A stretch of 64,000 bases of DNA from Sialis fuliginosa (lineage: Eukaryota; Arthropoda; Insecta; Megaloptera; Sialidae). The position numbers and the translations under genes are program-made. The notes beneath the pieces are model-generated. The model was not told where the DNA came from. It ran no database searches and saw only the letters and a list, made by a program, of their open reading frames with translations. Shown piece after piece: positions 3,469 to 64,000 of this stretch. The stretch covers positions 1,922,001-1,986,000 of the forward strand of contig OY540821.1 of NCBI GenBank assembly GCA_961205875.1. The letters run 5' to 3'. The first letter of the stretch is position 1; every line of letters starts with the position of its first letter.

Positions 3469-4215
3469 TTAAACATAAACTTTAACATAAATTAAAACAT
3501 AAACTTAAACATAAACATAAACATAAATTCAAAAATAAACTTAAACATAAACTTAGACATAAACTTAAACATAAATTTAAACATAAATTTAAACATAAAT
3601 TTAAACATAAATTTAAACATAAACTTAAACATAAATTTAAACATAAACTTAAACATAAATTTAAACATAAAATTAAACAAAAATTAAAACGTAAATTTAA
3701 ACATAATTTAAAACATAAACTTAAACATAAACTTAAACATAAATTTAAACATAAATTTAAACATAAATTTAAACATAAATTTAAACATAAACTTAAACAT
3801 AAATTAAAACATAAACTTAAACATAAACATAAACATAAATTCAAAAATATACTTAAACATAAACTTAGACATAAAATTAAACATAAACTTAAACATAAAC
3901 TTAAACATAAACTTAAACATAAACTTAAAGATAAACTTAAACATAAACTTAAACATAAATTCAAACATAAATTTAAACATAAATTTAAACATAAACTTAA
4001 AAGTAAAGTTAAACATAAATTAAAACATAAATTTAAACATAAACTTAAACATAAACTTAAACTAAAATTTAAACATAAATTTAAACATAAACTTAAACAT
4101 AAACTTAAACATAAACTTAACCATAAACTTAAACATAAACTTAAACATAAACTTAAACATAAACTTAAATATAAACTTAAACATAAATTTAAACATAAAT
4201 TTAAACAAACATAAA
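3469..4215 (-). repeat. CATAAA/dodecamer arm
   Basis: CATAAACTTAAA and CATAAATTTAAA dodecamers with minor variants. The long open frames in it (FMFKFM-like and CLSLCL-like) are products of the 6-bp period. Confidence 0.95.
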
Positions 4216-4518
4216 CATAAGCAAATGTTTAAACATAAACTAAATTATAAACGTAAATAATCAAACATAAATCGGTGTATTTTGATAATAAACGTCTCGA
4301 TTCGTACTAATAACAATCGGATCAAATTATTTTAAATCAATTCCATCAGTTTGGATACTTATCGGAAATTTAGCGTCTAAAATGACTAGATTTGACATAA
4401 TTTGATGTAATTTGAGTGAAATGATGATTTTCGACTTAATTCGTTTTTACAATTAAAAATAATTATTTTAAATCTTTTGAAATAGACTGATTTGTTATTT
4501 TTGATATTTTTATTAATG
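4216..4518 (+). repeat. Spacer 4 (orientation B)
   Basis: Spacer in the opposite orientation to spacers 1-3: ATAAACGTCTCGATTCGTAC, then ACAATCGGATCAAATTATTT, ending near GACTGATTTGTTATTTTTG. The AAATCGACTCGATTT dyad present in most copies is missing here. Left arm is CATAAA, right arm TTTATG. Confidence 0.9.
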
Positions 4519-5164
4519 TTTGAATTTATGTTTAAGTTTATTTTTAAATTTATGTTTAAATTTACGTTTTAATTTATGTTTAATTTTATGTTTTAATTTA
4601 TGTTTAAATTTATGTTTAAATTTATGTTTAAGTTTATGTTTAAATTTATGTTTAAATTTATGTTTAAATTTATGTTTAAGTTTATGTCTAAGTTTATGTT
4701 TAAGTTTATGTTTATATTTATTTTTAAATTTATGTTTAAATTTATGTTTAAGTTTATGTTTAAGTATATGTTTAAATTTATGTTTAAATTTACGTTAGAA
4801 TTTATCTTTAATTTTATGTTTTAATTTATGTTTAAATTTATGTTAAAGTTTATGTTTAAGTTTATGTTTTAATATATGTTTAATTTTATGTTTTAATTTA
4901 TGTTTAAATTTATGTTTAAGTTTATGTTTTAATATATGTTTAAGTTTATTTTTAAATTTATGTTTAAATTTATGTTTAAATTTATATTTAAGTTTATGTT
5001 TAAGTTTATGTTTCAATTTATGTTTAAGTTTATGTTTAAATTTAAGTTTAAATTTATGTTTAAATTTATGTTTAAATTTATGTTTAAATTTATATTTAAA
5101 TTTATGTTTAAGTTTATGTTTAAGTTTATGTTTAAATTTATGTTTAAATTTATTTTTAAATTTA
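4519..5164 (+). repeat. TTTATG/dodecamer arm, left of Helitron
   Basis: Dodecamer TTTATGTTTAAA/G array with several one-base variants. It is interrupted at A5164 by the Helitron-like element and resumes at T6623 in frame. Confidence 0.95.
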
Positions 5165-5167
5165 CTA

Positions 5168-5196
5168 GGGGCTTTGCCCCTGGGCGCTTCGCGCCC
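5168..5196 (-). other. Tandem GC hairpins at Helitron 3' end
   Basis: Two adjacent perfect hairpins in otherwise very AT-rich DNA: GGGGC/GCCCC (5168-5172 with 5176-5180, loop TTT) and GGGCGC/GCGCCC (5182-5187 with 5191-5196, loop TTC). Their position next to CTAG fits the subterminal hairpin that marks Helitron 3' ends. Confidence 0.8.
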
Positions 5197-6240: not shown

Positions 6241-6622
6241 CTGTTTATGACAGGCAAATATCAAGTCCACGTGGAGTGTTTAAAATTCATACGAAATGTC
6301 AATTTTTGACCAATCACAGCGACGAAATTCTAAGAATTCCAAAAACAAAAGCCGAGTGTCGAAACTGCTAAATTTCAAATTAAACGTCAGAAAGTAAAAT
6401 TTTGTGCCAATTTTACATGTCGTTTCTCGGAAAAAAATACACATCACAGAAACTACTGTAGTTTTGCATAAGAATATAAGCCTGTTAACTGCATAAAGGA
6501 CGAATCTAAAAATAGGCAAAGTATGAAAAAAATCCAGTGAAAGGTTTACCGGGATATAAATTGATTGCTACCGGACAGATTTATAAATATATATACTCAC
6601 GGTTTTATATATAATAGAGGGA

Positions 6623-7886
6623 TGTTTAAATTTATGTTTAAGTTTATATCTAAGTTTATGTTTAAGTTTATTTTTGAATTTATGTTTTTGTTTATGTTTA
6701 TGTTTATGTTTAAGTTTATGTTTTAATTTATGTTTATGTTTAAATTTATCTTTAAATTTATGTTTAAATTTATGTTTAAATTTATGTTTAAGTTTATGTT
6801 TAAGTTTATGTTTTAATATATGTTTAAGTTTAAGTTTAAATTTATGTTTAAATTTTTGTTTAAATTTATGTTTGAATTTATGTTTAAGTTTATGTTTAAA
6901 TTTATATTTAAATTTATGTTTAAATTTATTTTTAAATTTATGTTTAAATTTATGTTTAAGTTTATGTCTAAGTTTATGTTTAAGTTTATTTTTGAATTTA
7001 TGTTTATGTTTATGTTTAAGTTGATGTTTTAATTTGTGTTTAAATTTATGTTTAAATTTATGTTAAAATTTATGTTTAAGTTTATGTCTAAGTTTATGTT
7101 TAAGTGTATTTTTGAATTTATGTTTAAGCTTATGTTTAAATTTATGTTTAAATTTATGTTTAAATTTATGTTAAAGTTTATGTTTAAATTTATGTTTAAA
7201 TTTATGTTTAAATTTATTTTTAAATTTATGTTAAAATTTATGTTTAAGTTTATGTCTAAGTTTATGTTTAAGTTTATTTTTGAATTTATGTTTATATTTA
7301 TGTTTATGTTTAAGTTTATGTTTTAATTTATGTTTAAATTTATATTTTAATTTATGTTTAAATTTATGTTTAAGTTTATGTCTATGTTTTAATTTATGTT
7401 TAAATTTATGTATAAATTTATGTTTAAATTTATGTTTAAATTTATGTTTAAATTCATGATTTAATTCATGTGTAAATTTATGTTTAAGTTTATGTTTAAA
7501 TTTAAGTTTAAGTTTATATTTTAATTTTTGTTTAAATTTATGTTTAACTTTATGTTTATGTTTATGTTTAAGTTTATGTTTTAATTTATGTTTAAGTTTA
7601 TGTTTAAATTTATGTTTATATTTATCTTTAAATTTATGTTTAAATTTATGTTTTAATTTATGTTTAAGTTTATGTTTAAGTTTATGTTTAAATTTATGTT
7701 TAAGTTTATGTTTAAGTTTATGTTTCAATTTATGTTTAAGTTTATGTTTAAATTCATATTTATATTTATGTTTAAATTAATGTTTAAATTTATGTTTAAA
7801 TTTATATTTAAATTTATGTTTAAGTTTATGTTTAAGTTTATGTTTAAATTTATGTTTAAATTTATGTTTAAATTTATTTTTAAATA
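6623..7886 (+). repeat. TTTATG/dodecamer arm, right of Helitron
   Basis: Continuation of the 4519-5164 arm: mixed TTTATGTTTAAA/G with TTTATGTCTAAG and TTTTTGAA variants, ending at a flip to CATAAA near 7886. Confidence 0.95.
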
Positions 7887-8130
7887 TAAACATAAACATA
7901 AAAGTAAACGTAAACGTAAACGTAAACGTAAACGTAAACGTAAACGTAAACGTAAACGTAAACGTAAACGTAAACGTAAACGTAAACGTAAACGTAAACG
8001 TAAACGTAAACGTAAACGTAAACGTAAACGTAAACGTAAACGTAAACGTAAACGTAAACGTAAACGTAAACGTAAACTTAAACGTAAACGTAAACGTAAA
8101 CGTAAACGTAAACATAAACATAAACATACA
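7887..8130 (-). repeat. CATAAA arm with homogeneous CGTAAA block
   Basis: Short CATAAA arm in which positions 7909-8112 are about 34 copies of the one-base variant CGTAAA, with a single CTTAAA inside. The copies next to the spacer revert to CATAAA. The block looks like local expansion of one mutant hexamer. Confidence 0.95.
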
Positions 8131-8459
8131 TAAGCAAAAGATTAAACATAAACTAAATCATACACGTAAATAAACATATAACATCTTCAAATCGACTCGA
8201 TTTGTATTAAATCGGTGTATTTTGATAATAAACGTCTCGATTCGTACCAATAACAATCGGATCAAATTATTTTAAATCAATTCCATCAGTTTGGATACTT
8301 ATCGGAAATTTAGTGTCTAAAATGACTAGATTTGACATAATTTGATGTAATTTGAGTGAAATGATGATTTTCGACTTAATTCGTTTTTACAATTAAAAAT
8401 AATTATTTTAAATCTCTTGAAAAAGACTGATTTGTTAATTTTTATATTTTTATTAATGT
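8131..8459 (+). repeat. Spacer 5 (orientation B)
   Basis: Full-length spacer from TAAGCAAAAGATTAAACATA through the AAATCGACTCGATTT dyad and ACAATCGGATCAAATTATTT to TTTTTATTAATG. Confidence 0.95.
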
Positions 8460-8976
8460 TTGAATTTATGTTTATATTTAAATTTATGTTTATGATTAAA
8501 TTTATGTTTAAATTTATGTTTAAATTTATGTTTAAATTTATGTTTAAGTTTATGTTTAAGTTTATGCTTAAATTAACGTTTTAATTTATGTGTAATTTTA
8601 TGTTTTAATTTATGTTTAAATTCATGATTAAATTTATGTTTAAATTTATGTTTAAGGTTATGTTTAAGTTTATGTTTAAATTTATGTTTAAGTTTATGTT
8701 TAAGTTTATGTTTAAATTTATGTTTAAATTTACGTTTTAATTTACTTTTAATTTAATGTTTTAATTTATGTTTAAATTTATGTTTAAATTTATGTTTAAG
8801 TTTATGTCGAAGTTTATGTTTAAGTTTATGTTTAAATTTATGTTTAAATTTATGTTTAAATTTATGTTTGAATTTATGTTTAAATTTATGTTTAAATTTA
8901 TGTTTAAATTTATGTTTAAATTTATGTTTAAATTTATGTTTAAGTTTATGTTTAAGTTTATGTTAAAGTTTATGTC
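8460..8976 (+). repeat. TTTATG/dodecamer arm
   Basis: Dodecamer-type TTTATG satellite that flips to CATAAA at TTTATGTCTAAACATAAA (about 8968-8985). Confidence 0.95.
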
Positions 8977-9124
8977 TAAACATAAACATAAACATAAATT
9001 AAAACATAAACTTAAACATAAACATAAACATAAATTCAAAAATAAACTTAAAAATAAACTTAGACATAAACTTAAACATAAATTAAAACATAAAATTAAA
9101 CGTAAATTAAAACGTAAATTAAAA
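8977..9124 (-). repeat. Degenerate CATAAA arm
   Basis: Mixed CATAAA, CTTAAA and AAATTCAAAAAT variants, between the flip junction and the long pure array. Confidence 0.9.
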
Positions 9125-10940
9125 CATAAACATAAACATAAACATAAACATAAACATAAACATAAACATAAACATAAACATAAACATAAACATAAACATA
9201 AACATAAACATAAACATAAACATAAACATAAACATAAACATAAACATAAACATAAACATAAACATAAACATAAACATAAACATAAACATAAACATAAACA
9301 TAAACATAAACATAAACATAAACATAAACATAAACATAAACATAAACATAAACATAAACATAAACATAAACATAAACATAAACATAAACATAAACATAAA
9401 CATAAACATAAACATAAACATAAACATAAACATAAACATAAACATAAACATAAACATAAACATAAACATAAACATAAACATAAACATAAACATAAACATA
9501 AACATAAACATAAACATAAACATAAACATAAACATAAACATAAACATAAACATAAACATAAACATAAACATAAACATAAACATAAACATAAACATAAACA
9601 TAAACATAAACATAAACATAAACATAAACATAAACATAAACATAAACATAAACATAAACATAAACATAAACATAAACATAAACATAAACATAAACATAAA
9701 CATAAACATAAACATAAACATAAACATAAACATAAACATAAACATAAACATAAACATAAACATAAACATAAACATAAACATAAACATAAACATAAACATA
9801 AACATAAACATAAACATAAACATAAACATAAACATAAACATAAACATAAACATAAACATAAACATAAACATAAACATAAACATAAACATAAACATAAACA
9901 TAAACATAAACATAAACATAAACATAAACATAAACATAAACATAAACATAAACATAAACATAAACATAAACATAAACATAAACATAAACATAAACATAAA
10001 CATAAACATAAACATAAACATAAACATAAACATAAACATAAACATAAACATAAACATAAACATAAACATAAACATAAACATAAACATAAACATAAACATA
10101 AACATAAACATAAACATAAACATAAACATAAACATAAACATAAACATAAACATAAACATAAACATAAACATAAACATAAACATAAACATAAACATAAACA
10201 TAAACATAAACATAAACATAAACATAAACATAAACATAAACATAAACATAAACATAAACATAAACATAAACATAAACATAAACATAAACATAAACATAAA
10301 CATAAACATAAACATAAACATAAACATAAACATAAACATAAACATAAACATAAACATAAACATAAACATAAACATAAACATAAACATAAACATAAACATA
10401 AACATAAACATAAACATAAACATAAACATAAACATAAACATAAACATAAACATAAACATAAACATAAACATAAACATAAACATAAACATAAACATAAACA
10501 TAAACATAAACATAAACATAAACATAAACATAAACATAAACATAAACATAAACATAAACATAAACATAAACATAAACATAAACATAAACATAAACATAAA
10601 CATAAACATAAACATAAACATAAACATAAACATAAACATAAACATAAACATAAACATAAACATAAACATAAACATAAACATAAACATAAACATAAACATA
10701 AACATAAACATAAACATAAACATAAACATAAACATAAACATAAACATAAACATAAACATAAACATAAACATAAACATAAACATAAACATAAACATAAACA
10801 TAAACATAAACATAAACATAAACATAAACATAAACATAAACATAAACATAAACATAAACATAAACATAAACATAAACATAAACATAAACATAAACATAAA
10901 CATAAACATAAACATAAACATAAACATAAACATAAACATA
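9125..10940 (-). repeat. Uninterrupted (CATAAA)n array, ~302 copies
   Basis: About 1816 bp of CATAAA with no visible substitution. Every 60-base line from 9181 to 10920 is identical. Two frames on each strand stay open for 600-700 codons (HK, YV or MF dipeptides). This is a consequence of the hexamer and not evidence for a gene. It ends immediately before spacer 6. Confidence 0.98.
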
Positions 10941-11274
10941 CATAAGCAAAAGATTAAACATAAACTAAATCATACACGTAAATAAACATATAACATCTTC
11001 AAATCGACTCGATTTGTATTAAATCGGTGTATTTTGATAATAACCATCTCGATTCGTACCAATAACAATCGGATCAAATTATTTTAAATCAATTCCATCA
11101 GTTTGGATACTTATCGGAAATTTAGTGTCTAAAATGACTAGATTTGACATTATTTGATGTAATTTGAGTGAAATGATGATTTTCGACTTAATTCGTTTTT
11201 ACAATTAAAAATAATTATTTTAAATCTTTTGAAATAGACTGATTTGTTATTTTTTTTATTTTTATTCATGTTTG
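10941..11274 (+). repeat. Spacer 6 (orientation B)
   Basis: Near copy of spacer 5, with AACCATCTCG for AACGTCTCG and few other changes. CATAAA arm on the left, TTTATG arm on the right. Confidence 0.95.
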
Positions 11275-14200
11275 AATTGATGTTTAAGTTTATGTTTAAA
11301 TTTATGTTTAAGTTTATGTTTAAATTTATATTTAGGTTTATGTCTAAGTTTATGTTTAAGTTTATTTTTGAATTTATGTTTAAGTTTATGTTTAAGTTTA
11401 TGTTTAAGTTTATGTCTAAGTTTATGTTTGAATTTATGTTTTAATTTATGTTTAAATTTATGTTTAAATTTATGTTTAAATTTATGTTTAAATTTATGTT
11501 TAAATTTATGTTTAAATATATGTTTAAATTTTTGTTTGAATTTATGTTTAAATTTATGTTTAAATTTATGTTTAAATATATGTTTAAATTTATGTTTCAG
11601 ATTATGTTTAAGTTTATGTTTAAATTTATGCTTAAATTTACGTTTTAATTTATGTTTAATCTTATGTTTTAATTTATGTTTAAATTTATGTTTAAATTTA
11701 TGTTTAAATTTATGTTTAATTAATTTATTATTTATGTTTATGTTTATGTTTATGTTTATGTTTATGTTTATGTTTATGTTTATGTTTATGTTTATGTTTA
11801 TGTTTATGTTTATGTTTATGTTTATGTTTATGTTTATGTTTATGTTTATGTTTATGTTTATGATTATGTTTATGTTTATGTTTATGTTTATGTTTATGTT
11901 TATGTTTAAGTTTATGTTTATGTTTAAATTTATGTTTATATTTATGTTTCAATTTGTGTTTAAATTTATGTTTAAATTTATGGTTAGGTTTATGTCTAAG
12001 TTTATGTTTAAGTTTATGTTTAAGTTTATGTTTAGATTTATGTTTAAATTTATGTTTAAATTTATGTTTAAGTTTATGTCTAAGTTTGTTTAAGTTTATG
12101 TTTAAATTTATGTTTAAATTAACGTTTTAATTTATGTTTAAATTTATGTTTAAATTTATGTTTAAATTTATGTTTAAATTTATGTTTAAATTTATGTTTA
12201 AGTTTATGTTTTAATTTATGCTTAAATTTACGTTTAAATTTATGTTTAAATTTATGTTTAAATTTATGTTTAAATTTATGTTTGAATTTTTGTTTAAATT
12301 TATGTTTAAATTTATGTTTAAATATATGTTTAAATTTATGTTTCAGATTATGTTTAAGTTTATGTTTAAATTTATGCTTAAATTTACGTTTTAATTTATG
12401 TTTAATCTTATGTTTTAATTTATGTTTAAATTTATGTTTAAATTTATGTTTAAATTTATGTTTAATTTATTTATTATTTATGTTTATGTTTATGTTTATG
12501 TTTATGTTTATGTTTATGTTTATGTTTATGTTTATGTTTATGTTTATGTTTATGATTATGTTTATGTTTATGTTTATGTTTATGTTTATGTTTATGTTTA
12601 TGTTTATGTTTAAATTTATGTTTATATTTATGTTTCAATTTGGTTTTAAATTTATGTTTAAATTTATGGTTAGGTTTATGTCTAAGTTTATGTTTAAGTT
12701 TATGTTTAAGTTTATGTTTAAATTTATGTTTAAATTTATGTTTAAATTTATGTTTAAGTTTATGTCTAAGTTTGTTTAAGTTTATGTTTAAATTTATGTT
12801 TAAATTAACGTTTAAATTTATGTTTAAATTTATGTTTAAATTTATGTTTAAATTTATGTTTAAGTTTATGTTTTAATTTATGCTTAAATTTACGTTTAAA
12901 TTTATGTTTAAATTTATGTTTAAATTTATGTTTAAATTTATGTTTAAATTTATGTTTAAGTTTATGTTTAAATTTATGCTTAAATTTACGTTTTAATTTA
13001 TGTTTAATTTTATGTTTTAATTTATGTTTAAATTTATGTTGAAATTTATGTTTAAATTTATGTTTAAATTCATGTTTAAATTTATGTTTAAATTCATGTT
13101 TAAATTTATGTTTCAATTTATGTTTAAGTTTATGTTTAAGTTTATGTCTAAGTTTATGTTTAAGTTTATGTCTAAGTTTATGTTTAAGTTTATGTTCGAA
13201 TTTATGTTTAAATTTATGTTTAAATTTATGTTTAAATTTATGTTTAATTTATTTATTATTTATGTTTATGTTTATGTTTATGTTTATGTTTATGTTTATG
13301 TTTATGTTTATGTTTATGTTTATGTTTATGTTTATGTTTATGTTTATGTTTATGTTTATGTTTATGTTTATGTTTATGTTTATGTTTATGTTTATGTTTA
13401 TGATTATGTTTATGTTTATGTTTATGTTTATGTTTATGTTTAAGTTTATGTTAATGTTTAAATTTATGTTTATATTTTAGTTTAAGTTTATGTTTAAATA
13501 TATGTTTAAATTTATGTTTAAATTTAAGTTTATATTTATGTTTCAATTTGTGTTTAAATTTATGTTTAAATTTATGGTTAGGTTTATGTCTAAGTTTATG
13601 TTTAAGTTTATGTCTAAGTTTGTTTAAGTTTATGTTTAAATTTATGTTTAAATTAACGTTTTAATTTATGTTTAAATTTATGTTTAAATTTATGTTTAAA
13701 TTTATGTTTAAATTTATGTTTAAATTTATGTTTAAGTTTATGTCTAAGTTTGTTTAAGTTTATGTTAAATTTATGTTTAAATTAACGTTTTAATTTATGT
13801 TTAAATTTATGTTTAAATTTATGTTTAAATTTATGTTTAAGTTTATGTTTTAATTTATGCTTAAATTTACGTTTAAATTTATGTTTAAATTTTTGTTTAA
13901 ATTTATGTTTAAATTTATGTTTAAATTTATGTTTAAGTTTATGTTTAAATTTATGCTTAAATTTACGTTTTAATTTATGTTTAATTTTATGTTTAAATTT
14001 ATGTTTAAGTTTATGTCTAAGTTTGTTTAAGTTTATGTTTAAATTTATGTTTAAATTAACGTTTTAATTTATGTTTAAATTTATGTTTAAATTTATGTTT
14101 AAATTTATGTTTAAATTTATGTTTAAATTTATGTTTAAGTTTATGTTTTAATTTATGCTTAAATTTACGTTTAAATTTATGTTTAAATTTATGTTTAAAT

Positions 14201-14622
14201 TTATGTTTAAATTTATGTTTAAGTTTATGTTTAAATTTATGCTTAAATTTACGTTTTAATTTATGTTTAATTATATGTTTTAATTTATGTTTAAATTTAT
14301 GTTTAAATTTATGTTTAAATTTATGTTTAAATTTATGTTTAAGTTTATGTTTTAATTTATGCTTAAATTTACGTTTAAATTTATGTTTAAATTTATGTTT
14401 AAATTTATGTTTAAATTTATGTTTAAATTTATGTTTAAGTTTATGTTTAAATTTATGCTTAAATTTACGTTTTAATTTATGTTTAATTTTATGTTTTAAT
14501 TTATGTTTAAATTTATGTTGAAATTTATGTTTAAATTTATGTTTAAATTCATGTTTAAATTTATGTTTAAATTCATGTTTAAATTTATGTTTACATTTAT
14601 GTTTACGTTTATGTTTAAGTTT
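11275..14622 (+). repeat. Long TTTATG satellite arm with internal duplications
   Basis: Dodecamer satellite with three pure (TTTATG)n islands (about 11733-11905, 12477-12612 and 13259-13442). Each island is preceded by TTTAATTTATTTATTATT-like sequence and followed by TTTATATTTATGTTTCAATTTG or close variants. Each cycle of about 740-780 bp repeats the same order of variants (AACGTTTTAATTTATG, GTCTAAGTTTGTTTAAG), so this is a local higher-order repeat. There is no spacer within these 3.3 kb. The arm is interrupted by Gypsy element 1 at 14623. Confidence 0.9.
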
Positions 14623-15793
14623 TGTTATACCCTCGTATGTATAATAGCGAGAAATAAAAACAATGGCTGGATAAAAAATAATTTTATTTTATTTTATACA
14701 AGTTTATTTGATGAATGGGCGTGGGGGTGTCGTTTCTTCTCGTTCCGGCAAGGGGCGACGGGGATTCCGGGGTTGTTAGAATCTGCGTGGCGTCCGTGAA
14801 CGTGGGCGTCTCGTGGCGGCCGTCAGGTCTCGGCGTGCGGCTTCCGGCGATCGTCCTTGGGTACGGCGGCGTCTCTGACTGATCGTCAGCGGTCCTCAAA
14901 CGTGAGGTGGCGGGCGGCGTCCTTCGGCGGTCGGCAGTGGTCCTCAAACGTGAGGCGGTGGGCGTCTCCTTCGGCGGCAGCAGCGGTCTTCAACGTGAGT
15001 CGGCAGTGGTCCTCAAACGTGAGGTAGTGGGCGTCTTCGTTGGCGGTCGACAGTGGTCCCCAAACGTCCGGTGGTGGACGTCTTCTTCGGCGGCGGCAGT
15101 GGTCCTCAAACGTCCGGTGGTGGACGTCTCCTTCGGCGGCGACAGTGGTCCTCAAACGTCCGGTGGTGGACGTCTTCTTCGGCGGCAGCAGTGGTTCTCA
15201 AACGTCCGGTGGTGGACGTCTTCTTCGGCGGTGGCAGTGGTCCTCAAACGTCCGGTGGTGGACGTCTTCTTCGGCGGCGGCAGTGGTCCTCAAACGTCCG
15301 GTGGTGGACGTCTTCTTCGGCGGCGGCAGTGGTCCTCAAACGTCCGGTGGTGGACGTCTTCTTCGGCGGCGGCAGTGGTCCTCGAAAAGCGTCACTGGAA
15401 CGAGTCTGGGAGCTTCCTGGGTTTGCTCGGCAGCAAAGTTCTATGTGACAGTCGCAATTGTACATAGAATGTTACAATTGAACGAACTAGTCGTACAAGT
15501 GGTTGGTAGGGCACTTGTTCCCTTGACTTTTCATAAAAAACCGGGAGGCCTTATATCGCCCACGGATGCGCTTCGTTGGTGAGAGCCAACTCGCAACTTC
15601 ACCCTTCTCCCTTTCATTAAGGAAGGATGGACTGATATTGTGGCGCGTTCGGATGGCGGTTTACCCTAGTTTTGGGTTTTGACGGTGATCCGTTTGAGCT
15701 AGGAGCGCCGGCGAGATGTCATTCGACAGCTGAAAGGATTCTCCAGTGCGTGGCGGACGAAATTTCATTGTCCGGTGAGGGGGGGGCATATCA
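14623..15793 (-). repeat. 3' LTR of Gypsy element 1
   Basis: About 1171 bp. The element-side start is TGATATGCCCC (at 15793 downwards) and the end is GAGGGTATAACA (at 14623). AATAAA repeats and TTGTTTTTATTTCTCGCTAT lie near the end. Its 46-bp minisatellite at 15004-15386 has one unit more than the 5' LTR. Confidence 0.92.
15004..15386 (-). repeat. 46-bp minisatellite in 3' LTR
   Basis: CAGTGGTCC recurs (plus strand) at 15004, 15051, 15097, 15143, 15189, 15235, 15281, 15327 and 15373. The core is CAAACGTCCGGTGGTGGACG. The open frames across it on both strands are repeat shadows. Confidence 0.9.
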
Positions 15794-15795
15794 AT

Positions 15796-15806: not shown

Positions 15807-15827
15807 GTTTTGAAGTTTCGTACGCTT

Positions 15828-33092: not shown

Positions 33093-33098
33093 GAATTT

Positions 33099-48183: not shown

Positions 48184-48343
48184 AAGCTTTAAACATAAAC
48201 TAAATTACACCTAAATAAACATATAACAACAACTGCAAATCGACTCGGAAATTTAGTGTTTAAATGACTAGATTTGACATTATTTGATGTAATTTGAGTC
48301 AAATGATGATTTTCGACTCAATTCTTTTTTACAATTAAAAATA
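48184..48343 (+). repeat. Spacer 15 (orientation B), ~105-bp deletion
   Basis: AAATCGACTCG is joined directly to GAAATTTAGTG. Against spacer 12 about 105 bp are lost between two TCG sites, which is 3-bp microhomology. The satellite arms still flip around it. Confidence 0.93.
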
Positions 48344-52088: not shown

Positions 52089-52147
52089 AAGCTTTAAACA
52101 TAAACTAAATCATACACCTAAATAAACATATAACAACAACTGCAAAT
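52089..52147 (+). repeat. Spacer 16 (orientation B), severely truncated
   Basis: Only the first 59 bp remain, AAGCTTTAAACATAAACTAA to CAACAACTGCAAAT. Satellite to its right continues as CATAAA, so this is the one place in the 42-64 kb region where the arms do not flip. Confidence 0.93.
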
Positions 52148-53664
52148 AAATTTAAACATAAATTTAAACATAAATTTAAACATAAATTTAAACATAAATT
52201 TAAACATAAATTTAAACATAAATTTAAACATAAATTCAAACATAAATTTAAACATAAATTTAAACATAAATTTAAACATAAATTCAAACATAAATTTAAA
52301 CATATATTTAAACATAAATTTAAACATAAATTTAAACATAAATTTAAACATAAATTTAATCATAAATTTAAACATAAATTAAAACATAAATTTAAACATA
52401 AATTTAAACATAAATTTAAACATAAATTTAAACATAAATTTAAACATAAATTTAAACATAAATTTAAACATAAATTTAAACATAAATTTAAACATAAATT
52501 TAAACATAAATTTAAACATAAATTTAAACATAAATTTAAACATAAATTTAAACATAAATTTAAACATAAATTTAAACATAAATTTAAACATAAATTTAAA
52601 CATAAATTTAAACATAAATTTAAACATAAATTTAAAATAAAATTTTAACATAAATAAAAACATAAATTTAAACATAAATTTAAACATAAATTTAAACATA
52701 AACTTAAACATAAATTTAAACATAAATTTAAACATAAATTTAAACATAAATTTAAACATAAATTTAAACATAAATTTAAACTAAAATTAAAACATAAATT
52801 TAAACATAAATTTAAACATAAATTTAAACATAAATTTAAACATAAATTTAAACATAAATTCAAACATAAATTTAAACATAAATTTAAACATAAATTTAAA
52901 CATAAATTTAAACATAAATTTAAACATAAATTTAAACATAAATTTAAACATAAATTTAAACATAAATTTAAACATAAATTCAAACATAAATTTAAACATA
53001 AATTTAAACATAAATTTAAACATAAATTTAAACATAAATTTAAACATAAATTTAAACATAAATTTAAACATAAATTTAAACATAAATTTAAACATAAACA
53101 TAAACATAACATAAACATAAACATAAACATAAACATAAACATAAACATAAACATAAACATAAACATAAACATAAACATAAACATAAACATAAACATAAAC
53201 ATAAACATAAACATAAACATAAACATAAACATAAACATAAACATAAACATAAACATAAACATAAACATAAACATAAACATAAACATAAACATAAACATAA
53301 ACATAAACATAAACATAAACATAAACATAAACATAAACATAAACATAAACATAAACATAAACATAAACATAAACATAAACATAAACATAAACATAAACAT
53401 AAACATAAACATAAACATAAACATAAACATAAACATAAACATAAACATAAACATAAACATAAACATAAACATAAACATAAACATAAACATAAACATAAAC
53501 ATAAACATAAACATAAACATAAACATAAACATAAACATAAACATAAACATAAACATAAACATAAACATAAACATAAACATAAACATAAACATAAACATAA
53601 ACATAAACATAAACATAAACATAAACATGAACATGAACATGAACATGAACATAAACATAAACAT
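52148..53664 (-). repeat. CATAAA arm without partner
   Basis: Dodecamers, then pure CATAAA from about 53095, with one 5-bp unit near 53105 and a CATGAA block at 53627-53650 before spacer 17. Confidence 0.95.
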
Positions 53665-53930
53665 AAGCTTTAAACATAAACTAAATCATACACCTAAATA
53701 AACATATAACAACAACTGCAAATCGACTCGATTTGTATTAAATCGGTCTATTTTGATAATAAACGTCTCGATTCGTACTAATAACAATCGGATCAAATTA
53801 TTTTAATTCAATTCCTTCAGTTTGGATATTTATCGGAAATTTAGTGTTTAAATGACTAGATTTGACATTATTTGATGTAATTTGAGTCAAATGATGATTT
53901 TCGACTCAATTCTTTTTACAATTAAAAATA
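53665..53930 (+). repeat. Spacer 17 (orientation B), start of 4.58-kb repeat
   Basis: AAGCTTT type with GGATATTTATCGG. Identical-looking copies at 58246 and, with a 6-bp loss, at 62365. Confidence 0.95.
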
Positions 53931-55418
53931 ATGTTTATGTTTATGTTGTTGTTTATGTTTATGTTTATGTTTATGTTTATGTTTATGTTTATGTTTATGT
54001 TTATGTTTATGTTTATGTTTATGTTTATGTTTATGTTTATGTTTATGTTTATGTATATGTTTATGTTTATGTTTATGTTTATGTTTATGTTTATGTTTAT
54101 GTTTATGTTTATGTTTATGTTTATGTTTATGTTTATGTTTATGTATATGTTTATGTTTATGTTTATGTTTATGTTTATGTTTATGTTTATGTTTATGTTT
54201 AAGTTTATGTTTATGTTTATGTTTATGTTTATGTTTATGTTTATGTTTATGTTTATGTTTATGTTTATGTTTATGTTTATGTTTATGTTTATGTTTATGT
54301 TTATGTTTATGTTTATGTTTATGTTTATGTTTATGTTTATGTTTATGTTTATGTTTATGTTTATGTTTATGTTTATGTTTATGTTTATGTTTATGTTTAT
54401 GTTTATGTTTATGTTTATGTTTATGTTTATGTTTATGTTTATGTTTATGTTTATGTTTATGTTTATGTTTATGTTTATGTCTATGTCTATGTCTATGTTT
54501 ATGTTTATGTTTATGGTTATGTTTATGTTTATGTTTATGTTTATGTTTATGTTTATGTTTATGTTTATGTTTATGTTTATGTTTATGTTTATGTTTATGT
54601 TTATGTTTATGTTTATGTTTATGTTTATGTTTATGTTTATGTTTATGTTTATGTTTAAGTTAATGTTTACGTTTATGTTTATGTTAATGTTTATGTTTAT
54701 ATTTAAGTTTATGTTTAAGTTTATGTTTAAATTTATGTTTCAATTTATGTTTAAATTTATGTTTAAATTTATGTTTAAATTTATGTTTAAATTTATGTTT
54801 AAAATGAATGTTTAAATTTAAGTTTATGTTTTAATTTATGTCTAAATTTAAACATAAATTTAAACATAAATTTAAACATAAATTTAAACATAAATTTAAA
54901 CATAAATTTAAACATAAATTTAAACATAAATTTAAACATAAATTTAAACATAAATTTAAACATAAATTAAAACATAAATTTAAACATAAATTTAAACATA
55001 AATTTAAACATAAATTTAAACATAAATTTAAACATAAATTTAAACATAAATTTTAACATAAATTTAAACATAAATTTAAACATAAATTTAAACATAAATT
55101 TTAACATAAACTTAAACATAAATTTAAACATAAATTTAAACATAAATTTAAACATAAATTAAAACATAAACTTAAACAAAACATAAACTTTAACATAAAC
55201 ATAAACATAAACATAAACATAAACATAAACATAAACATAAACATAAACATAAACATAAACATAAACATAAACAGTAACATAAACAGTAACATAAACATAA
55301 ACATAAACATAAACATAAACATAAACATAAACATAAACATAAACATAAACATAAACATAAACATAAACATAAACATAAACATAAACATAAACATAAACAT
55401 AAACATAAACATAAACAT
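53931..55418. repeat. Inverted satellite arms
   Basis: TTTATG with markers TATATG (54053, 54143), a TCTATG triplet (54479-54496) and GGTTATG. Flip near 54837. CATAAA side with two CAGTAA units near 55271-55288. Confidence 0.95.
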
Positions 55419-55686
55419 AAGCATTAAACATAAACTAAATCATACACCTAAATAAACATATAACAACAACAGCAAATCGACTCGATTTGTATTAAATCGG
55501 TCTATTTTGATAATAAACGTCTCGATTCGTACCAATAACAATCGGATCAAATTATATTAATTCAATTCCTTCAGTTTGGATACTTATCGGAAATTTAGTG
55601 TTTAAATGACTAGATTTGACATTATTTGATGTTATTTGAGTCAAATGATGAATTTCGACTCAATTCTTTTTTACAATTAAAAATAA
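55419..55686 (+). repeat. Spacer 18 (orientation B, AAGCATT subtype)
   Basis: Second spacer subtype: AAGCATT, CGTACCAATAAC, TTATATTAATTC, GATGTTATTTGAG and GATGAATTTCGAC. It alternates with the AAGCTTT subtype. Confidence 0.95.
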
Positions 55687-58245
55687 TGTTTTTGTTTATG
55701 TTGTTGTTTATGTTTAAGTTTATGTTTATGTTTATGTTTATGTTTATGTTTATGTTTATGTTTATGTTTATGTTTATGTTTATGTTTATGTTTATGTTTA
55801 TGTTTATGTTTATGTTTAAGTTAATGTTTACGTTTATGTTTATGTTAATGCTTATGTTTATATTTAAGTTTATGTTTAAGTTCATGTTTAAATTTAAGTT
55901 TCAATTTATGTTTAAATTAATGTTTAAATTTATGTTTAAAATGAATGTTTAATTTTATGTTTATGTTTAAATTTAAGTTTATGTTTTAATTTATGTCTAA
56001 TTTTATGATTAAATTTATGTTTAAATTTAAACATATATTTAAACAAAAAAAAATTTATGATTAAATTTATGTTTAAATTTAAACATAAATTTAAACATAA
56101 ATTTAAACATAAATTTAAACATATATTTAAACATAAATTTAAACATAAATTTAAACATAAATTTAAACATAAATTTAAACATAAATTTAAACATAAATTT
56201 AAACATAAATTTAAACATAAATTTAAACTAAAATTAAAACATAAATTTAAACATAAATTTAAACATAAATTTAAACATAAATAAAAACATAAATTTAAAC
56301 ATAAATTTAAACATAAATTTAAATATAAATTTAAACATAAATTTAAACATAAATTTAAACATAAATTTTAACATAAACTTAAACATAAATTTAAACATAA
56401 ATTTGAACATAAATTTAAACATAAATTTAAACATAAATTCAAACATAAATTTAAACATAAATTTAAACATAAATTTAAACATAAATTTAAACATATATTT
56501 AAACATAAATTTAAACATAAATTTAAACATAAATTTAATCATAAATTTAAACATAAATTAAAACATAAATTTAAACATAAATTTAAACATAAATTTAAAC
56601 ATAAATTTAAACATAAATTTAAACATAAATTTAAACATAAATTTAAACATAAATTTAAACATAAATTTAAACATAAATTTAAACATAAATTTAAACATAA
56701 ATTTAAACATAAATTTAAACATAAATTTAAACATAAATTTAAACATAAATTTAAACATAAATTTAAACATAAATTTAAACATAAATTTAAACATAAATTT
56801 AAACATAAATTTAAACATAAATTTAAAAAAAAATTTAAACATAAATAAAAACATAAATTTAAACATAAATTTAAACATAAATTTAAACATAAACTTAAAC
56901 ATAAATTTAAACATAAATTTAAACATAAATTTAAACATAAATTTAAACATAAATTTAAACATAAATTTAAACTAAAATTAAAACATAAATTTAAACATAA
57001 ATTTAAACATAAATTTAAACATAAATTTAAACATAAATTTAAACATAAATTCAAACATAAATTTAAACATAAATTTAAACATAAATTTAAACATAAATTT
57101 AAACATAAATTTAAACATAAATTTAAACATAAATTTAAACATAAATTTAAACATAAATTTAAACATAAATTTAAACATAAATTTAAACATAAATTTAAAC
57201 ATAAATTTAAACATAAATTTAAACATAAATTTAAACATAAATTTAAAATAAAATTTTAACATAAATAAAAACATAAATTTAAACATAAATTTAAACATAA
57301 ATTTAAACATAAACTTAAACATAAATTTAAACATAAATTTAAACATAAATTTAAACATAAATTTAAACATAAATTTAAACATAAATTTAAACTAAAATTA
57401 AAACATAAATTTAAACATAAATTTAAACATAAATTTAAACATAAATTTAAACATAAATTTAAACATAAATTCAAACATAAATTTAAACATAAATTTAAAC
57501 ATAAATTTAAACATAAATTTAAACATAAATTTAAACATAAATTTAAACATAAATTTAAACATAAATTTAAACATAAATTTAAACATAAATTCAAACATAA
57601 ATTTAAACATAAATTTAAACATAAATTTAAACATAAATTTAAACATAAATTTAAACATAAATTTAAACATAAATTTAAACATAAATTTAAACATAAATTT
57701 AAACATAAACATAAACATAACATAAACATAAACATAAACATAAACATAAACATAAACATAAACATAAACATAAACATAAACATAAACATAAACATAAACA
57801 TAAACATAAACATAAACATAAACATAAACATAAACATAAACATAAACATAAACATAAACATAAACATAAACATAAACATAAACATAAACATAAACATAAA
57901 CATAAACATAAACATAAACATAAACATAAACATAAACATAAACATAAACATAAACATAAACATAAACATAAACATAAACATAAACATAAACATAAACATA
58001 AACATAAACATAAACATAAACATAAACATAAACATAAACATAAACATAAACATAAACATAAACATAAACATAAACATAAACATAAACATAAACATAAACA
58101 TAAACATAAACATAAACATAAACATAAACATAAACATAAACATAAACATAAACATAAACATAAACATAAACATAAACATAAACATAAACATAAACATAAA
58201 CATAAACATGAACATGAACATGAACATGAACATAAACATAAACAT
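55687..58245. repeat. Inverted satellite arms with double flip
   Basis: Short TTTATG arm, then a flip region at 55995-56100 with two copies of a TTATGATTAAATTTATG motif around an A-rich tract. It includes the perfect 34-bp palindrome 56061-56094. A long CATAAA side follows, pure from about 57707, ending with a CATGAA block at 58206-58229. Confidence 0.95.
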
Positions 58246-58511
58246 AAGCTTTAAACATAAACTAAATCATACACCTAAATAAACATATAACAACAACTGC
58301 AAATCGACTCGATTTGTATTAAATCGGTCTATTTTGATAATAAACGTCTCGATTCGTACTAATAACAATCGGATCAAATTATTTTAATTCAATTCCTTCA
58401 GTTTGGATATTTATCGGAAATTTAGTGTTTAAATGACTAGATTTGACATTATTTGATGTAATTTGAGTCAAATGATGATTTTCGACTCAATTCTTTTTAC
58501 AATTAAAAATA
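58246..58511 (+). repeat. Spacer 19 (orientation B, AAGCTTT subtype)
   Basis: Copy of spacer 17 at offset 4581. Confidence 0.95.
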
Positions 58512-60005
58512 ATGTTTATGTTTATGTTGTTGTTTATGTTTATGTTTATGTTTATGTTTATGTTTATGTTTATGTTTATGTTTATGTTTATGTTTATGTT
58601 TATGTTTATGTTTATGTTTATGTTTATGTTTATGTATATGTTTATGTTTATGTTTATGTTTATGTTTATGTTTATGTTTATGTTTATGTTTATGTTTATG
58701 TTTATGTTTATGTTTATGTATATGTTTATGTTTATGTTTATGTTTATGTTTATGTTTATGTTTATGTTTATGTTTAAGTTTATGTTTATGTTTATGTTTA
58801 TGTTTATGTTTATGTTTATGTTTATGTTTATGTTTATGTTTATGTTTATGTTTATGTTTATGTTTATGTTTATGTTTATGTTTATGTTTATGTTTATGTT
58901 TATGTTTATGTTTATGTTTATGTTTATGTTTATGTTTATGTTTATGTTTATGTTTATGTTTATGTTTATGTTTATGTTTATGTTTATGTTTATGTTTATG
59001 TTTATGTTTATGTTTATGTTTATGTTTATGTTTATGTTTATGTTTATGTTTATGTTTATGTCTATGTCTATGTCTATGTTTATGTTTATGTTTATGGTTA
59101 TGTTTATGTTTATGTTTATGTTTATGTTTATGTTTATGTTTATGTTTATGTTTATGTTTATGTTTATGTTTATGTTTATGTTTATGTTTATGTTTATGTT
59201 TATGTTTATGTTTATGTTTATGTTTAAGTTAATGTTTACGTTTATGTTTATGTTAATGTTTATGTTTATATTTAAGTTTATGTTTAAGTTTATGTTTAAA
59301 TTTATGTTTCAATTTATGTTTAAATTTATGTTTAAATTTATGTTTAAATTTATGTTTAAATTTATGTTTAAAATGAATGTTTAAATTTAAGTTTATGTTT
59401 TAATTTATGTCTAAATTTAAACATAAATTTAAACATAAATTTAAACATAAATTTAAACATAAATTTAAACATAAATTTAAACATAAATTTAAACATAAAT
59501 TTAAACATAAATTTAAACATAAATTTAAACATAAATTAAAACATAAATTTAAACATAAATTTAAACATAAATTTAAACATAAATTTAAACATAAATTTAA
59601 ACATAAATTTAAACATAAATTTTAACATAAATTTAAACATAAATTTAAACATAAATTTAAACATAAATTTTAACATAAACTTAAACATAAATTTAAACAT
59701 AAATTTAAACATAAATTTAAACATAAATTAAAACATAAACTTAAACAAAACATAAACTTTAACATAAACATAAACATAAACATAAACATAAACATAAACA
59801 TAAACATAAACATAAACATAAACATAAACATAAACATAAACATAAACAGTAACATAAACAGTAACATAAACATAAACATAAACATAAACATAAACATAAA
59901 CATAAACATAAACATAAACATAAACATAAACATAAACATAAACATAAACATAAACATAAACATAAACATAAACATAAACATAAACATAAACATAAACATA
60001 AACAT
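58512..60005. repeat. Inverted satellite arms, copy of 53931-55418
   Basis: Same markers in the same order (TATATG, TCTATG triplet, GGTTATG, flip, CAGTAA pair). Hexamer runs differ slightly in copy number. Confidence 0.95.
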
Positions 60006-60272
60006 AAGCATTAAACATAAACTAAATCATACACCTAAATAAACATATAACAACAACAGCAAATCGACTCGATTTGTATTAAATCGGTCTATTTTGATAA
60101 TAAACGTCTCGATTCGTACCAATAACAATCGGATCAAATTATATTAATTCAATTCCTTCAGTTTGGATACTTATCGGAAATTTAGTGTTTAAATGACTAG
60201 ATTTGACATTATTTGATGTTATTTGAGTCAAATGATGAATTTCGACTCAATTCTTTTTTACAATTAAAAATA
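60006..60272 (+). repeat. Spacer 20 (orientation B, AAGCATT subtype)
   Basis: Copy of spacer 18 at offset 4587. Confidence 0.95.
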
Positions 60273-62364
60273 ATGTTTTTGTTTATGTTGTTGTTTATGT
60301 TTAAGTTTATGTTTATGTTTATGTTTATGTTTATGTTTATGTTTATGTTTATGTTTATGTTTATGTTTATGTTTATGTTTATGTTTATGTTTATGTTTAT
60401 GTTTAAGTTAATGTTTACGTTTATGTTTATGTTAATGCTTATGTTTATATTTAAGTTTATGTTTAAGTTCATGTTTAAATTTAAGTTTCAATTTATGTTT
60501 AAATTAATGTTTAAATTTATGTTTAAAATGAATGTTTAATTTTATGTTTATGTTTAAATTTAAGTTTATGTTTTAATTTATGTCTAATTTTATGATTAAA
60601 TTTATGTTTAAATTTAAACATATATTTAAACAAAAAAAAATTTATGATTAAATTTATGTTTAAATTTAAACATAAATTTAAACATAAATTTAAACATAAA
60701 TTTAAACATAAATTTAAACATATATTTAAACATAAATTTAAACATAAATTTAAACATAAATTTAAACATAAATTTAAACATAAATTTAAACATAAATTTA
60801 AACATAAATTTAAACATAAATTTAAACTAAAATTAAAACATAAATTTAAACATAAATTTAAACATAAATTTAAACATAAATAAAAACATAAATTTAAACA
60901 TAAATTTAAACATAAATTTAAATATAAATTTAAACATAAATTTAAACATAAATTTAAACATAAATTTTAACATAAACTTAAACATAAATTTAAACATAAA
61001 TTTGAACATAAATTTAAACATAAATTTAAACATAAATTCAAACATAAATTTAAACATAAATTTAAACATAAATTTAAACATAAATTTAAACATATATTTA
61101 AACATAAATTTAAACATAAATTTAAACATAAATTTAATCATAAATTTAAACATAAATTAAAACATAAATTTAAACATAAATTTAAACATAAATTTAAACA
61201 TAAATTTAAACATAAATTTAAACATAAATTTAAACATAAATTTAAACATAAATTTAAACATAAATTTAAACATAAATTTAAACATAAATTTAAACATAAA
61301 TTTAAACATAAATTTAAACATAAATTTAAACATAAATTTAAACATAAATTTAAACATAAATTTAAACATAAATTTAAACATAAATTTAAACATAAATTTA
61401 AACATAAATTTAAACATAAATTTAAAAAAAAATTTAAACATAAATAAAAACATAAATTTAAACATAAATTTAAACATAAATTTAAACATAAACTTAAACA
61501 TAAATTTAAACATAAATTTAAACATAAATTTAAACATAAATTTAAACATAAATTTAAACATAAATTTAAACTAAAATTAAAACATAAATTTAAACATAAA
61601 TTTAAACATAAATTTAAACATAAATTTAAACATAAATTTAAACATAAATTCAAACATAAATTTAAACATAAATTTAAACATAAATTTAAACATAAATTTA
61701 AACATAAATTTAAACATAAATTTAAACATAAATTTAAACATAAATTTAAACATAAATTCAAACATAAATTTAAACATAAATTTAAACATAAATTTAAACA
61801 TAAATTTAAACATAAATTTAAACATAAATTTAAACATAAATTTAAACATAAATTTAAACATAAATTTAAACATAAACATAAACATAACATAAACATAAAC
61901 ATAAACATAAACATAAACATAAACATAAACATAAACATAAACATAAACATAAACATAAACATAAACATAAACATAAACATAAACATAAACATAAACATAA
62001 ACATAAACATAAACATAAACATAAACATAAACATAAACATAAACATAAACATAAACATAAACATAAACATAAACATAAACATAAACATAAACATAAACAT
62101 AAACATAAACATAAACATAAACATAAACATAAACATAAACATAAACATAAACATAAACATAAACATAAACATAAACATAAACATAAACATAAACATAAAC
62201 ATAAACATAAACATAAACATAAACATAAACATAAACATAAACATAAACATAAACATAAACATAAACATAAACATAAACATAAACATAAACATAAACATAA
62301 ACATAAACATAAACATAAACATAAACATAAACATAAACATAAACATAAACATAAACATAAACAT
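60273..62364. repeat. Inverted satellite arms, copy of 55687-58245
   Basis: Same double flip and 34-bp palindrome (60648-60681). The CATAAA side is about 420 bp shorter through loss of one dodecamer block, and it lacks the CATGAA block. Confidence 0.95.
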
Positions 62365-62624
62365 AAGCTTTAAACATAAACTAAATCATACACCTAAATA
62401 AACATATAACAACAACTGCAAATCGACTCGATTTGTATTAAATCGGTCTATTTTGATAATAAACGTCTCGATTCGTACTAATAACAATCGGATCAAATTA
62501 TTTTAATTCAATTCCTTCAGTTTGGATATTTATCGGAAATTTAGTGTTTAAATGACTAGATTTGACATTATTTGATGTAATTTGAGTCAAATGATGATTT
62601 CAATTCTTTTTACAATTAAAAATA
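62365..62624 (+). repeat. Spacer 21 (orientation B, AAGCTTT subtype)
   Basis: Copy of spacer 19 at offset 4119, with a 6-bp loss (GATGATTTCAATTC). Confidence 0.95.
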
Positions 62625-63950
62625 ATGTTTATGTTTATGTTGTTGTTTATGTTTATGTTTATGTTTATGTTTATGTTTATGTTTATGTTTATGTTTATGT
62701 TTATGTTTATGTTTATGTTTATGTTTATGTTTATGTTTATGTTTATGTTTATGTATATGTTTATGTTTATGTTTATGTTTAAGTTTATGTTTATGTTTAT
62801 GTTTATGTTTATGTTTATGTTTATGTTTATGTTTATGTTTATGTTTATGTTTATGTTTATGTTTATGTTTATGTTTATGTTTATGTTTATGTTTATGTTT
62901 ATGTTTATGTTTATGTTTATGTTTATGTTTATGTTTATGTTTATGTTTATGTTTATGTTTATGTTTATGTTTATGTTTATGTTTATGTTTATGTTTATGT
63001 TTATGTTTATGTTTATGTTTATGTTTATGTTTATGTTTATGTTTATGTTTATGTTTATGTCTATGTTTATGTTTATGTTTATGTTTATGGTTATGTTTAT
63101 GTTTATGTTTATGTTTATGTTTATGTTTATGTTTATGTTTATGTTTATGTTTATGTTTATGTTTATGTTTATGTTTATGTTTATGTTTATGTTTATGTTT
63201 ATGTTTAAGTTAATGTTTACGTTTATGTTTATGTTAATGTTTATGTTTATATTTAAGTTTATGTTTAAGTTTATGTTTAAATTTATGTTTCAATTTATGT
63301 TTAAATTAATGTTTAAATTTATGTTTAAATTTATGTTTAAATTTATGTTTAAAATGAATGTTTAAATTTAAGTTTATGTTTTAATTTATGTCTAAATTTA
63401 AACATAAATTTAAACATAAATTTAAACATAAATTTAAACATAAATTTAAACATAAATTTAAACATAAATTTAAACATAAATTTAAACATAAATTTAAACA
63501 TAAATTTAAACATAAATTAAAACATAAATTTAAACATAAATTTAAACATAAATTTAAACATAAATTTAAACATAAATTTAAACATAAATTTAAACATAAA
63601 TTTAAACATAAATTTAAACATAAATTTAAACATAAATTTAAACATAAATTTAAACATAAATTTAAACATAAATTTAAACATAAATTTTAACATAAACTTA
63701 AACATAAATTTAAACATAAATTTAAACATAAATTTAAACATAAATTAAAACATAAACTTAAACAAAACATAAACTTTAACATAAACATAAACATAAACAT
63801 AAACATAAACATAAACATAAACATAAACATAAACAGTAACATAAACAGTAACATAAACATAAACATAAACATAAACATAAACATAAACATAAACATAAAC
63901 ATAAACATAAACATAAACATAAACATAAACATAAACATAAACATAAACAT
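62625..63950. repeat. Inverted satellite arms, third copy
   Basis: Same order as 58512-60005, with one TATATG and one TCTATG in place of two and three, a flip near 63388, and a CAGTAA pair at 63834-63851. Confidence 0.95.
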
Positions 63951-64000
63951 AAGCATTAAACATAAACTAAATCATACACCTAAATAAACATATAACAACA
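63951..64000 (+). repeat. Spacer 22 (AAGCATT subtype), cut by window end
   Basis: First 50 bp of a spacer of the subtype seen at 55419 and 60006, so the higher-order repeat continues beyond the window. Confidence 0.93.

What the first reader, a model, noticed from the sequence alone, without database searches (positions are those of the whole stretch)
3469..64000. Hexamer satellite organised as a chain of inverted arms around a conserved spacer
Seen directly: nearly every full spacer has CATAAA on its left and TTTATG on its right, whichever way the spacer itself points. Between spacers the strand flips back. The array is thus a series of large inverted repeats, not a head-to-tail satellite. 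Such DNA can form hairpins or cruciforms and would yield double-stranded RNA if transcribed. A role in centromere, heterochromatin or replication is only inference. I know of no described satellite with this exact TTTATG/spacer layout.
Basis: partly seen in the sequence, partly recalled or inferred. Interest (0 to 1): 0.88.

Follow-up and report, generated by a model that had tools for sequence, protein, structure and literature searches.

The report
Palindromic, likely centromeric, satellite DNA
The window is the edge of a large block of repeated DNA, built from a conserved core between two opposite-facing arms of six-letter repeats; similar blocks sit at one place on several other chromosomes of this insect-like genome, which suggests that they mark centromeres, although no protein evidence was available.

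Summary
The layout is real. In the window and 14 other array stretches, 75 of 84 core ('spacer') copies have CATAAA arms on the left and TTTATG arms on the right, whichever way the core points. Nine do not (edge, truncated, cut or ambiguous copies; two have TTTATG on both sides); none is fully reversed. 'Not head-to-tail' needs correcting: each unit (core plus two inverted arms, median spacing 1.3-2.1 kb) is a dyad, but units run head-to-tail in long blocks that sometimes switch direction (C5, C10).

The window is the left edge of a ~0.35-Mb array on C13 of a 392-Mb assembly with 14 chromosome-size contigs. Arrays were shown on seven of the 14 (C1, C5, C9-C13). C7 has a 24-base hexamer probe, and C3 a single core hit that could be an isolated copy. 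Each has one place, 1.4-2.6 Mb from an end except on C1. C2, C4, C6, C8 and C14 are unresolved.

Best reading: a (peri)centromeric satellite with macro-dyad organisation, like that published for Tribolium madens but with a different composite unit. Centromere function was not tested. New variant of a known kind.

The parts
775..2145 (.). left edge of the array: hexamer runs and two diverged core copies (1358-1666 and 1699-2021, both pointing left)
   Evidence: the 10 kb to the left (L010) holds no array
3469..4271 (-). CATAAA arm (left arm of the first complete unit)
4215..4510 (+). core (spacer), right-pointing
   Evidence: 88% to the copy at 10940
4512..5164 (+). TTTATG arm (right arm of the first complete unit)
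6622..8974 (.). TTTATG array, flip, (TAAACG)n variant arm 7887-8125, right-pointing core 8128-8450, TTTATG arm
8981..10964 (-). nearly pure (CATAAA)n arm, 313 hexamers
10940..11262 (+). core used as query, long form; its 3' extension was found only within this window
11264..14626 (+). TTTATG arm
21128..24614 (.). left-pointing core 22023-22297 with its arms; includes a 45-bp tandem repeat 23529-23777
24647..32337 (.). three units with left-pointing long cores (25884-26206, 28720-29042, 30752-31074), arms flipping at 27330/27363, 29484/29497, 31492/31505
   Evidence: stretches around the cores 99.6-100% identical
32357..38472 (+). Ty3-type LTR retrotransposon inserted in the array; LTRs 32357-33092 and 37737-38472 identical over the 733 bases compared; AAGC on both sides
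38476..41497 (.). unit with left-pointing core 38892-39214 and arms
42097..42375 (+). core, short form, right-pointing; followed by the TTTATG arm 42377-42898, flip, CATAAA arm 42911-43875
43850..44126 (+). core
46456..46732 (+). core; 46281-46910 folded as single strand, z -27.6
48174..48345 (+). core with an internal deletion
   Evidence: two pieces
48788..53680 (-). longest CATAAA arm of the window, 439 hexamers
53655..62380 (.). two copies of a ~4.6-kb higher-order block, each with two cores (53655-53932, 55409-55693; 58236-58513, 59996-60280); stretches of 545-762 bases identical between the copies
62355..64000 (.). core 62355-62626, TTTATG arm, flip, CATAAA arm, start of the next core

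Best explanation
The window is the left edge of a (peri)centromeric satellite array. Shown: the unit is (CATAAA-type array)-core of about 250 bp-(TTTATG-type array); units are tandemly repeated in long same-direction blocks with occasional block reversals; arrays lie in one place on each of seven chromosome-size contigs, are about 0.35-0.6 Mb on C1, C5, C12 and C13 (at least 0.41 on C10), and core variants differ between the chromosomes compared. Inferred: the first dyad arose when a break or stalled fork copied back at the self-complementary TTTAAA step of the 12-mer, giving head-to-head arms; unequal exchange or break-induced copying within each chromosome then amplified and homogenised the dyad unit; the AT-rich, hairpin-capable arrays form the centromeric or pericentromeric chromatin, and the best-conserved part of the core (alignment columns 61-120, with the 17-base dyad CAAATCGACTCGATTTG) is a plausible protein-binding site.
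For: One place per contig. C1: 32.108-32.71 Mb of 47.1. C5: 32.43-32.87 of 35.4. C13: 1.92-2.27 of 17.9. C12: 1.83-2.29 of 19.3, 39 hits, hexamers at 2.0 Mb. C10: 1.81 to at least 2.22 of 20.4, 72 hits listed (list cut), probe at 2.30 negative. C9: core hits at 2.117 and 2.119, hexamers at 2.118, core at 2.25, negative at 2.0, of 23.3. C11: hexamers at 1.40, cores with arms at 1.495, negative at 1.60, of 20.3. Weaker: C3, one core hit at 34.99 of 36.8; C7, two 12-mers in a 24-base probe at 2.40 of 24.9, 1 of 6 probes on C7, placed there because the other arrays suggested it. The complete lists show no hit outside these places. Homogenisation: the T-allele 25-mer has 63 hits, all on C13; C1 cores form two groups, 1.5-1.7% diverse within and 6.5% between. 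Recent local amplification: direct repeats of 0.5-1.0 kb at 99.6-100%. The 1-kb and 600-base probes outside the C1, C5 and C13 arrays have GC 0.22-0.45 and at most 9 hexamers. Conservation in columns 61-120; exact dyad in 65 of 77 cores.
Against: No CenH3, Hi-C or cytological data. Five of 14 chromosomes are unresolved; C3 and C7 rest on one observation each and the C3 hit could be an isolated copy. All placed arrays except C1's lie 1.4-2.6 Mb from an end, which would also suit a subterminal heterochromatin block. One probe inside the C1 range (32.68 Mb) is GC 0.63 without hexamers, so arrays are interrupted. The fold-back origin is inferred from junction sequence only; arms at one flip are no more alike than random arms, so any founding inversion is old. 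In C1 core direction goes with subfamily, so there is no sign of frequent ongoing flips. Core conservation may partly reflect recent common descent of the 77 copies.
Confidence: 0.66

Rival explanations
1. A heterochromatic or subterminal satellite block without centromere function, amplified only because hairpin-forming DNA breaks and recombines easily.
For: Eight of the nine places lie 1.4-2.6 Mb from a chromosome end. Recent local duplications show that amplification alone can make such arrays.
Against: One place per contig wherever it was seen, including an internal place on the largest chromosome (C1, 14.4 Mb from the nearer end), which suits acrocentric chromosomes plus one (sub)metacentric.
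Confidence: 0.18
2. A foldback-type transposable element (inverted arms of short tandem repeats around a middle) whose copies became a tandem satellite, as proposed for Tetris in Drosophila virilis.
For: The unit has foldback-like anatomy: opposed tandem-repeat arms around a middle. Tetris is described in print as a foldback element that supplied building blocks for a satellite (PMC4079207, passages). The single core hit on C3 could be an isolated copy; its surroundings were not read.
Against: No copy outside array places in four complete lists; the 3' extension of the long core has 9 hits with up to 3 mismatches, all inside this window. No terminal domain or target duplication was seen at unit borders; flips join arms directly. 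These patterns would miss diverged copies.
Confidence: 0.12
3. Assembly artefact: flips produced by collapsed or wrongly joined repeats.
For: Near-identical kilobase repeats are hard to assemble, and no reads could be checked.
Against: The same layout occurs in the sampled array stretches of C1, C5 and C13, with different core variants and 23 distinct flip junctions, and a retrotransposon with an AAGC duplication sits in the array.
Confidence: 0.04

Closest known systems
Tribolium madens major and minor satellites TmSat1/TmSat2 (macro-dyad symmetries), PMC13081366
   Same: Satellite arrays in putative (peri)centromeric regions made of opposed subarrays that could form hairpins or cruciforms; conserved inversion sites; the authors propose, without proof, a role in (peri)centromeric chromatin (passages and part 1 of the discussion seen).
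   Different: There both satellites derive from a ~110-bp unit, occupy multi-megabase regions, and macro-dyads span a few to tens of kilobases. Here the arms are a 6/12-bp repeat, each unit is a dyad of its own around a ~250-bp core, and arrays measured are ~0.35-0.6 Mb.
Tetris foldback element and TIR-220 satellite, Drosophila virilis, PMC4079207
   Same: Inverted arms of internal tandem repeats; link to a satellite (passages seen).
   Different: Tetris has structurally complete copies with target duplications and a terminal domain; none was found here.
Yeast regional centromeres with a mid core flanked by inverted repeats (Komagataella phaffii, Candida tropicalis, C. parapsilosis), PMC7263194
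   Same: Core flanked by inverted repeats; [quoted passage not shown]
   Different: A yeast centromere has one core; here arrays hold dozens to over a hundred units in an insect-like genome, and there is no CenH3 evidence.
Intra-unit dyad satellites: Tribolium brevicornis 1061-bp satellite (~470-bp inverted segments), Trichogramma brassicae 385-bp satellite (80-bp inverted repeats)
   Same: Inverted segments inside one satellite unit (as cited in PMC13081366; the original papers were not seen).
   Different: The passages do not describe hexamer arms or a separate core.

Membership tests
macro-dyad (peri)centromeric satellite (Tribolium madens type) | arrays of one satellite containing opposed subarrays | tested here: met
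   75 of 84 cores with opposed arms, 90 flips; block reversals on C5 and C10
macro-dyad (peri)centromeric satellite (Tribolium madens type) | conserved inversion sites | tested here: met
   four of 23 junction sequences account for 55 of 90 flips; copying of whole units may explain part of this
macro-dyad (peri)centromeric satellite (Tribolium madens type) | present on all chromosomes in (peri)centromeric regions | tested here: inconclusive
   arrays on 7 of 14 chromosome-size contigs, single observations on C3 and C7; C2, C4, C6, C8, C14 unresolved
macro-dyad (peri)centromeric satellite (Tribolium madens type) | sequence relationship to TmSat1/TmSat2 | not tested
   Tribolium sequences were not looked up
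functional centromere | CenH3/CENP-A occupancy | not testable with these tools
   no chromatin data
functional centromere | one array per chromosome | tested here: inconclusive
   one place on each contig where seen; 5 of 14 unresolved, C3 and C7 weak
foldback (FB/Tetris) transposable element | arms of short tandem repeats in inverted orientation around a middle | tested here: met
foldback (FB/Tetris) transposable element | dispersed copies at single sites | tested here: inconclusive
   0 hits outside array places in the complete lists; but one lone core hit on C3 was not examined, and diverged copies could be missed
foldback (FB/Tetris) transposable element | target-site duplications at element ends | tested here: inconclusive
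   unit borders are direct arm-to-arm flips; no isolated copy was inspected

The most novel reading that the evidence does not exclude
Each unit is a small centromere module, comparable to a yeast core flanked by inverted repeats, reiterated dozens to over a hundred times per array: the conserved 17-base dyad in the core binds a sequence-specific (dimeric) protein, and the hexamer arms extrude hairpins that favour CenH3 loading whichever way the core points. That would explain why polarity of arms around the core is kept while core direction is free.
Probability: 0.13. Interest if true: 0.82.

Novelty: new variant of a known kind. Interest (0 to 1): 0.55.

Why it matters
The 2026 Tribolium madens paper proposed that opposed satellite subarrays, rather than one sequence, may be a feature of (peri)centromeric DNA. 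Here is a case with a different unit plan and compact arrays inside chromosome-scale contigs, so the idea can be tested by mapping CenH3 on arrays of known structure. The kept arm polarity around a freely oriented core also separates 'symmetry matters' from 'direction matters'.

Tried and rejected
Foldback transposon as the present state: weakened, not excluded, by the absence of copies outside array places in four complete lists; the lone C3 hit was not followed. Frequent spacer inversion by crossing-over between its own arms: not supported, because in C1 the two core directions are two groups 6.5% apart, each 1.5-1.7% diverse. Fresh exact palindromes at flips: rejected; own arms are not more alike than random arms (the ungapped version was uninformative because of phase shifts). 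Coding potential: frames over the hexamer arrays are long but repetitive and were not pursued. RNA families: none at gathering score and none at E up to 0.1. Relatives elsewhere: no exact match of core patterns in viral contigs or genome contigs, no blastn match in phages; these collections are not of insect genomes, so this says little. Host: the gag search gave 236 hits, 120 listed; the four with organism names are beetles at 36-41% identity, so 'insect' is inference. Self-BLAST with long words timed out and was replaced by a k-mer script. CENP-B-box likeness: looked at by eye from recall, no match seen, not tested.

Limits: pattern searches list only the first 100 places, in contig order; some searches were cut, searches were complete. 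The DNA search scored 40 of 1632 candidates. Nine of 12 genome searches were answered; one more, for the C9 variant, did not complete, so C2, C4, C6, C8 and C14 stay open. Two probes (L107 on C14, L128 on C8) read N.
Full report
What was given. The window is G000:C13:1922001-1986000 of a 392,097,322-base assembly in 20 contigs. Fourteen contigs are chromosome-size (C1 47.1 Mb down to C14 16.8 Mb) and six are 15.6-25.6 kb (lengths).

Anatomy in the window. Hexamer arrays cover 40,759 of 64,000 bases. From 38.4 kb on they alternate almost strictly: minus array, core, plus array, flip, minus array. BLAST of the core copy at 10940-11262 finds 20 core copies: a long form up to 39 kb and a form ~47 bases shorter at the 3' end from 42 kb on. 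Sixteen of the 20 have CATAAA on the left and TTTATG on the right. The four others are three copies at the left edge, of which one (1699-2021) is near full length with TTTATG on both sides, and one whose left arm is a TAAACG variant.

Beyond the window. Fourteen further array stretches from C13, C1 and C5 bring the total to 84 cores: 75 with C-left/T-right, 9 others, none with T-left/C-right. Spacing from core to core is 319-5862 bases; medians are 2113 (C13, n=25), 1274 (C1, n=25) and 1804 (C5, n=9). Of 90 flips, 23 sequences occur, and 34 of the 90 are perfectly palindromic around TTTAAATTTAAA. A core with its arms folds at -200.2 kcal/mol as single-stranded DNA against a mean of -64.1 for 20 shuffles; this shows potential only.

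Is it head-to-tail? At the level of the arm, no; at the level of the unit, yes. On C5 the listed hits of one core pattern are 80 minus-strand and 2 plus-strand up to 32.674 Mb, then 17 plus-strand from 32.824 Mb (first 100 of 185 listed). On C10 they are 14 minus-strand up to 1.871 Mb, then 57 plus-strand to 2.223 Mb with one minus among them (first 100 of 136 listed). So long same-direction blocks exist with a reversal between blocks, which is the macro-dyad pattern one level up. On C1, left- and right-pointing cores are mixed.

Where it lies. Arrays: C1 32.108-32.71 Mb; C5 32.43-32.87; C13 1.92-2.27; C12 1.83-2.29 (39 hits plus a probe at 2.0 Mb); C10 1.81 to at least 2.22; C9 2.12-2.25; C11 1.40-1.50. 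Weaker: C3, one core hit at 34.99 Mb of 36.8, surroundings not read; C7, two 12-mers in a 24-base probe at 2.40 Mb. C7 came from guessing that arrays lie near 2 Mb from an end: of the 20 probes (on C6, C7, C8, C14) one hit, one read N (C8 at 2.4 Mb) and 18 showed ordinary sequence. Probes at 2.0 Mb on C2, C3, C4, C6, C7 and C8 were negative. C2 and C4 gave no hit; C6 and C8 none; C14 none. These are exact patterns and would miss chromosome-specific variants: the C9 probe at 2.25 Mb, for example, carries an inserted T in the pattern region (L118). The complete lists contain no hit outside the array places. Inside the C1 range one 600-base probe (32.68 Mb) is GC 0.63 without hexamers, so the array is interrupted.

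Evolution. The T allele at core position 121 occurs 63 times, all on C13. C1 cores form two groups 6.5% apart, one per direction, each 1.5-1.7% diverse; C5 is 0.7-2.2% diverse within directions and 2.5% between (77 cores with at least 230 aligned bases). Direct repeats of 0.5-1.0 kb at 99.6-100% within the window point to recent local amplification. The 3' extension of the long core form has 9 hits in the genome with up to 3 mismatches, all within the window, so the array edge keeps an older or separate form. Arms meeting at a flip are no more alike than random arms, and arms around a core only slightly more, so the founding inversions are not recent copies.

How it probably works. Shown: dyad unit, head-to-tail blocks, one place per chromosome where seen, differing core variants with one shown to be C13-specific. 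Inferred: origin by copying back at the self-complementary TTTAAA step; growth by unequal exchange or break-induced copying; (peri)centromeric identity. The best-conserved stretch of the core is alignment columns 61-120 apart from column 90, with a perfect 17-base dyad present unchanged in 65 of 77 cores; common descent may explain part of this, and protein binding is a guess.

Comparison with print. The nearest published case is Tribolium madens (PMC13081366; passages and part 1 of the discussion seen): opposed subarrays of two satellites in putative (peri)centromeric regions, conserved inversion sites, hairpin potential, function unproven. Tetris (PMC4079207; passages) is described as a foldback element that seeded a satellite; its copies with target duplications have no counterpart found here. 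Yeast centromeres with a core between inverted repeats (PMC7263194; passages) are similar in plan only. My ten literature searches listed no paper that I recognised as describing this TTTATG/core unit; apart from the three papers named, I saw listings only.

Verdict. Function remains untested.

Noticed in passing
window 32357-38472: Ty3-type retrotransposon with identical LTRs, open gag (33174-34586) and pol (34553-37741) frames, inserted in the satellite with a 4-base duplication; apparently a recent insertion into a putative centromeric array.
   Followed up: partly
window 14600-21140: second, GC-rich Ty3-type element (gag 18926-19969 and pol 15828-19322, minus strand) whose flanking repeats contain 46-bp tandem repeats (15001-15383, 20367-20703).
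   Followed up: partly
window 2523-3049 and 23529-23777: 45-bp tandem repeat with an open frame, present in two places; no Pfam match in the frames scanned.
   Followed up: no
window 7887-8125 and about 22700-22840: the hexamer arm switches to (TAAACG)n over ~240 bases, and elsewhere to TTCATG: local hexamer variants amplified in place.
   Followed up: no
L052 (C5:32880000-32880999): a different tandem repeat of roughly 175 bases (by eye) beside the right end of the C5 array.
   Followed up: no
L040 (C1:32080000-32080999): about 27 kb left of the C1 array the sequence reads like the start of an NRAMP-type metal transporter gene (my reading, no search), so genes may lie close to the array.
   Followed up: no
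L107 (C14:1001-1048), L128 (C8:2400000-2400023): read as N: withheld stretch or assembly gap; C8 at 2.4 Mb is just where an array might be expected.
   Followed up: no
C1:32680000-32680599 (L094): 600 bases of GC 0.63 without hexamers inside the C1 array range, probably an inserted element.
   Followed up: no
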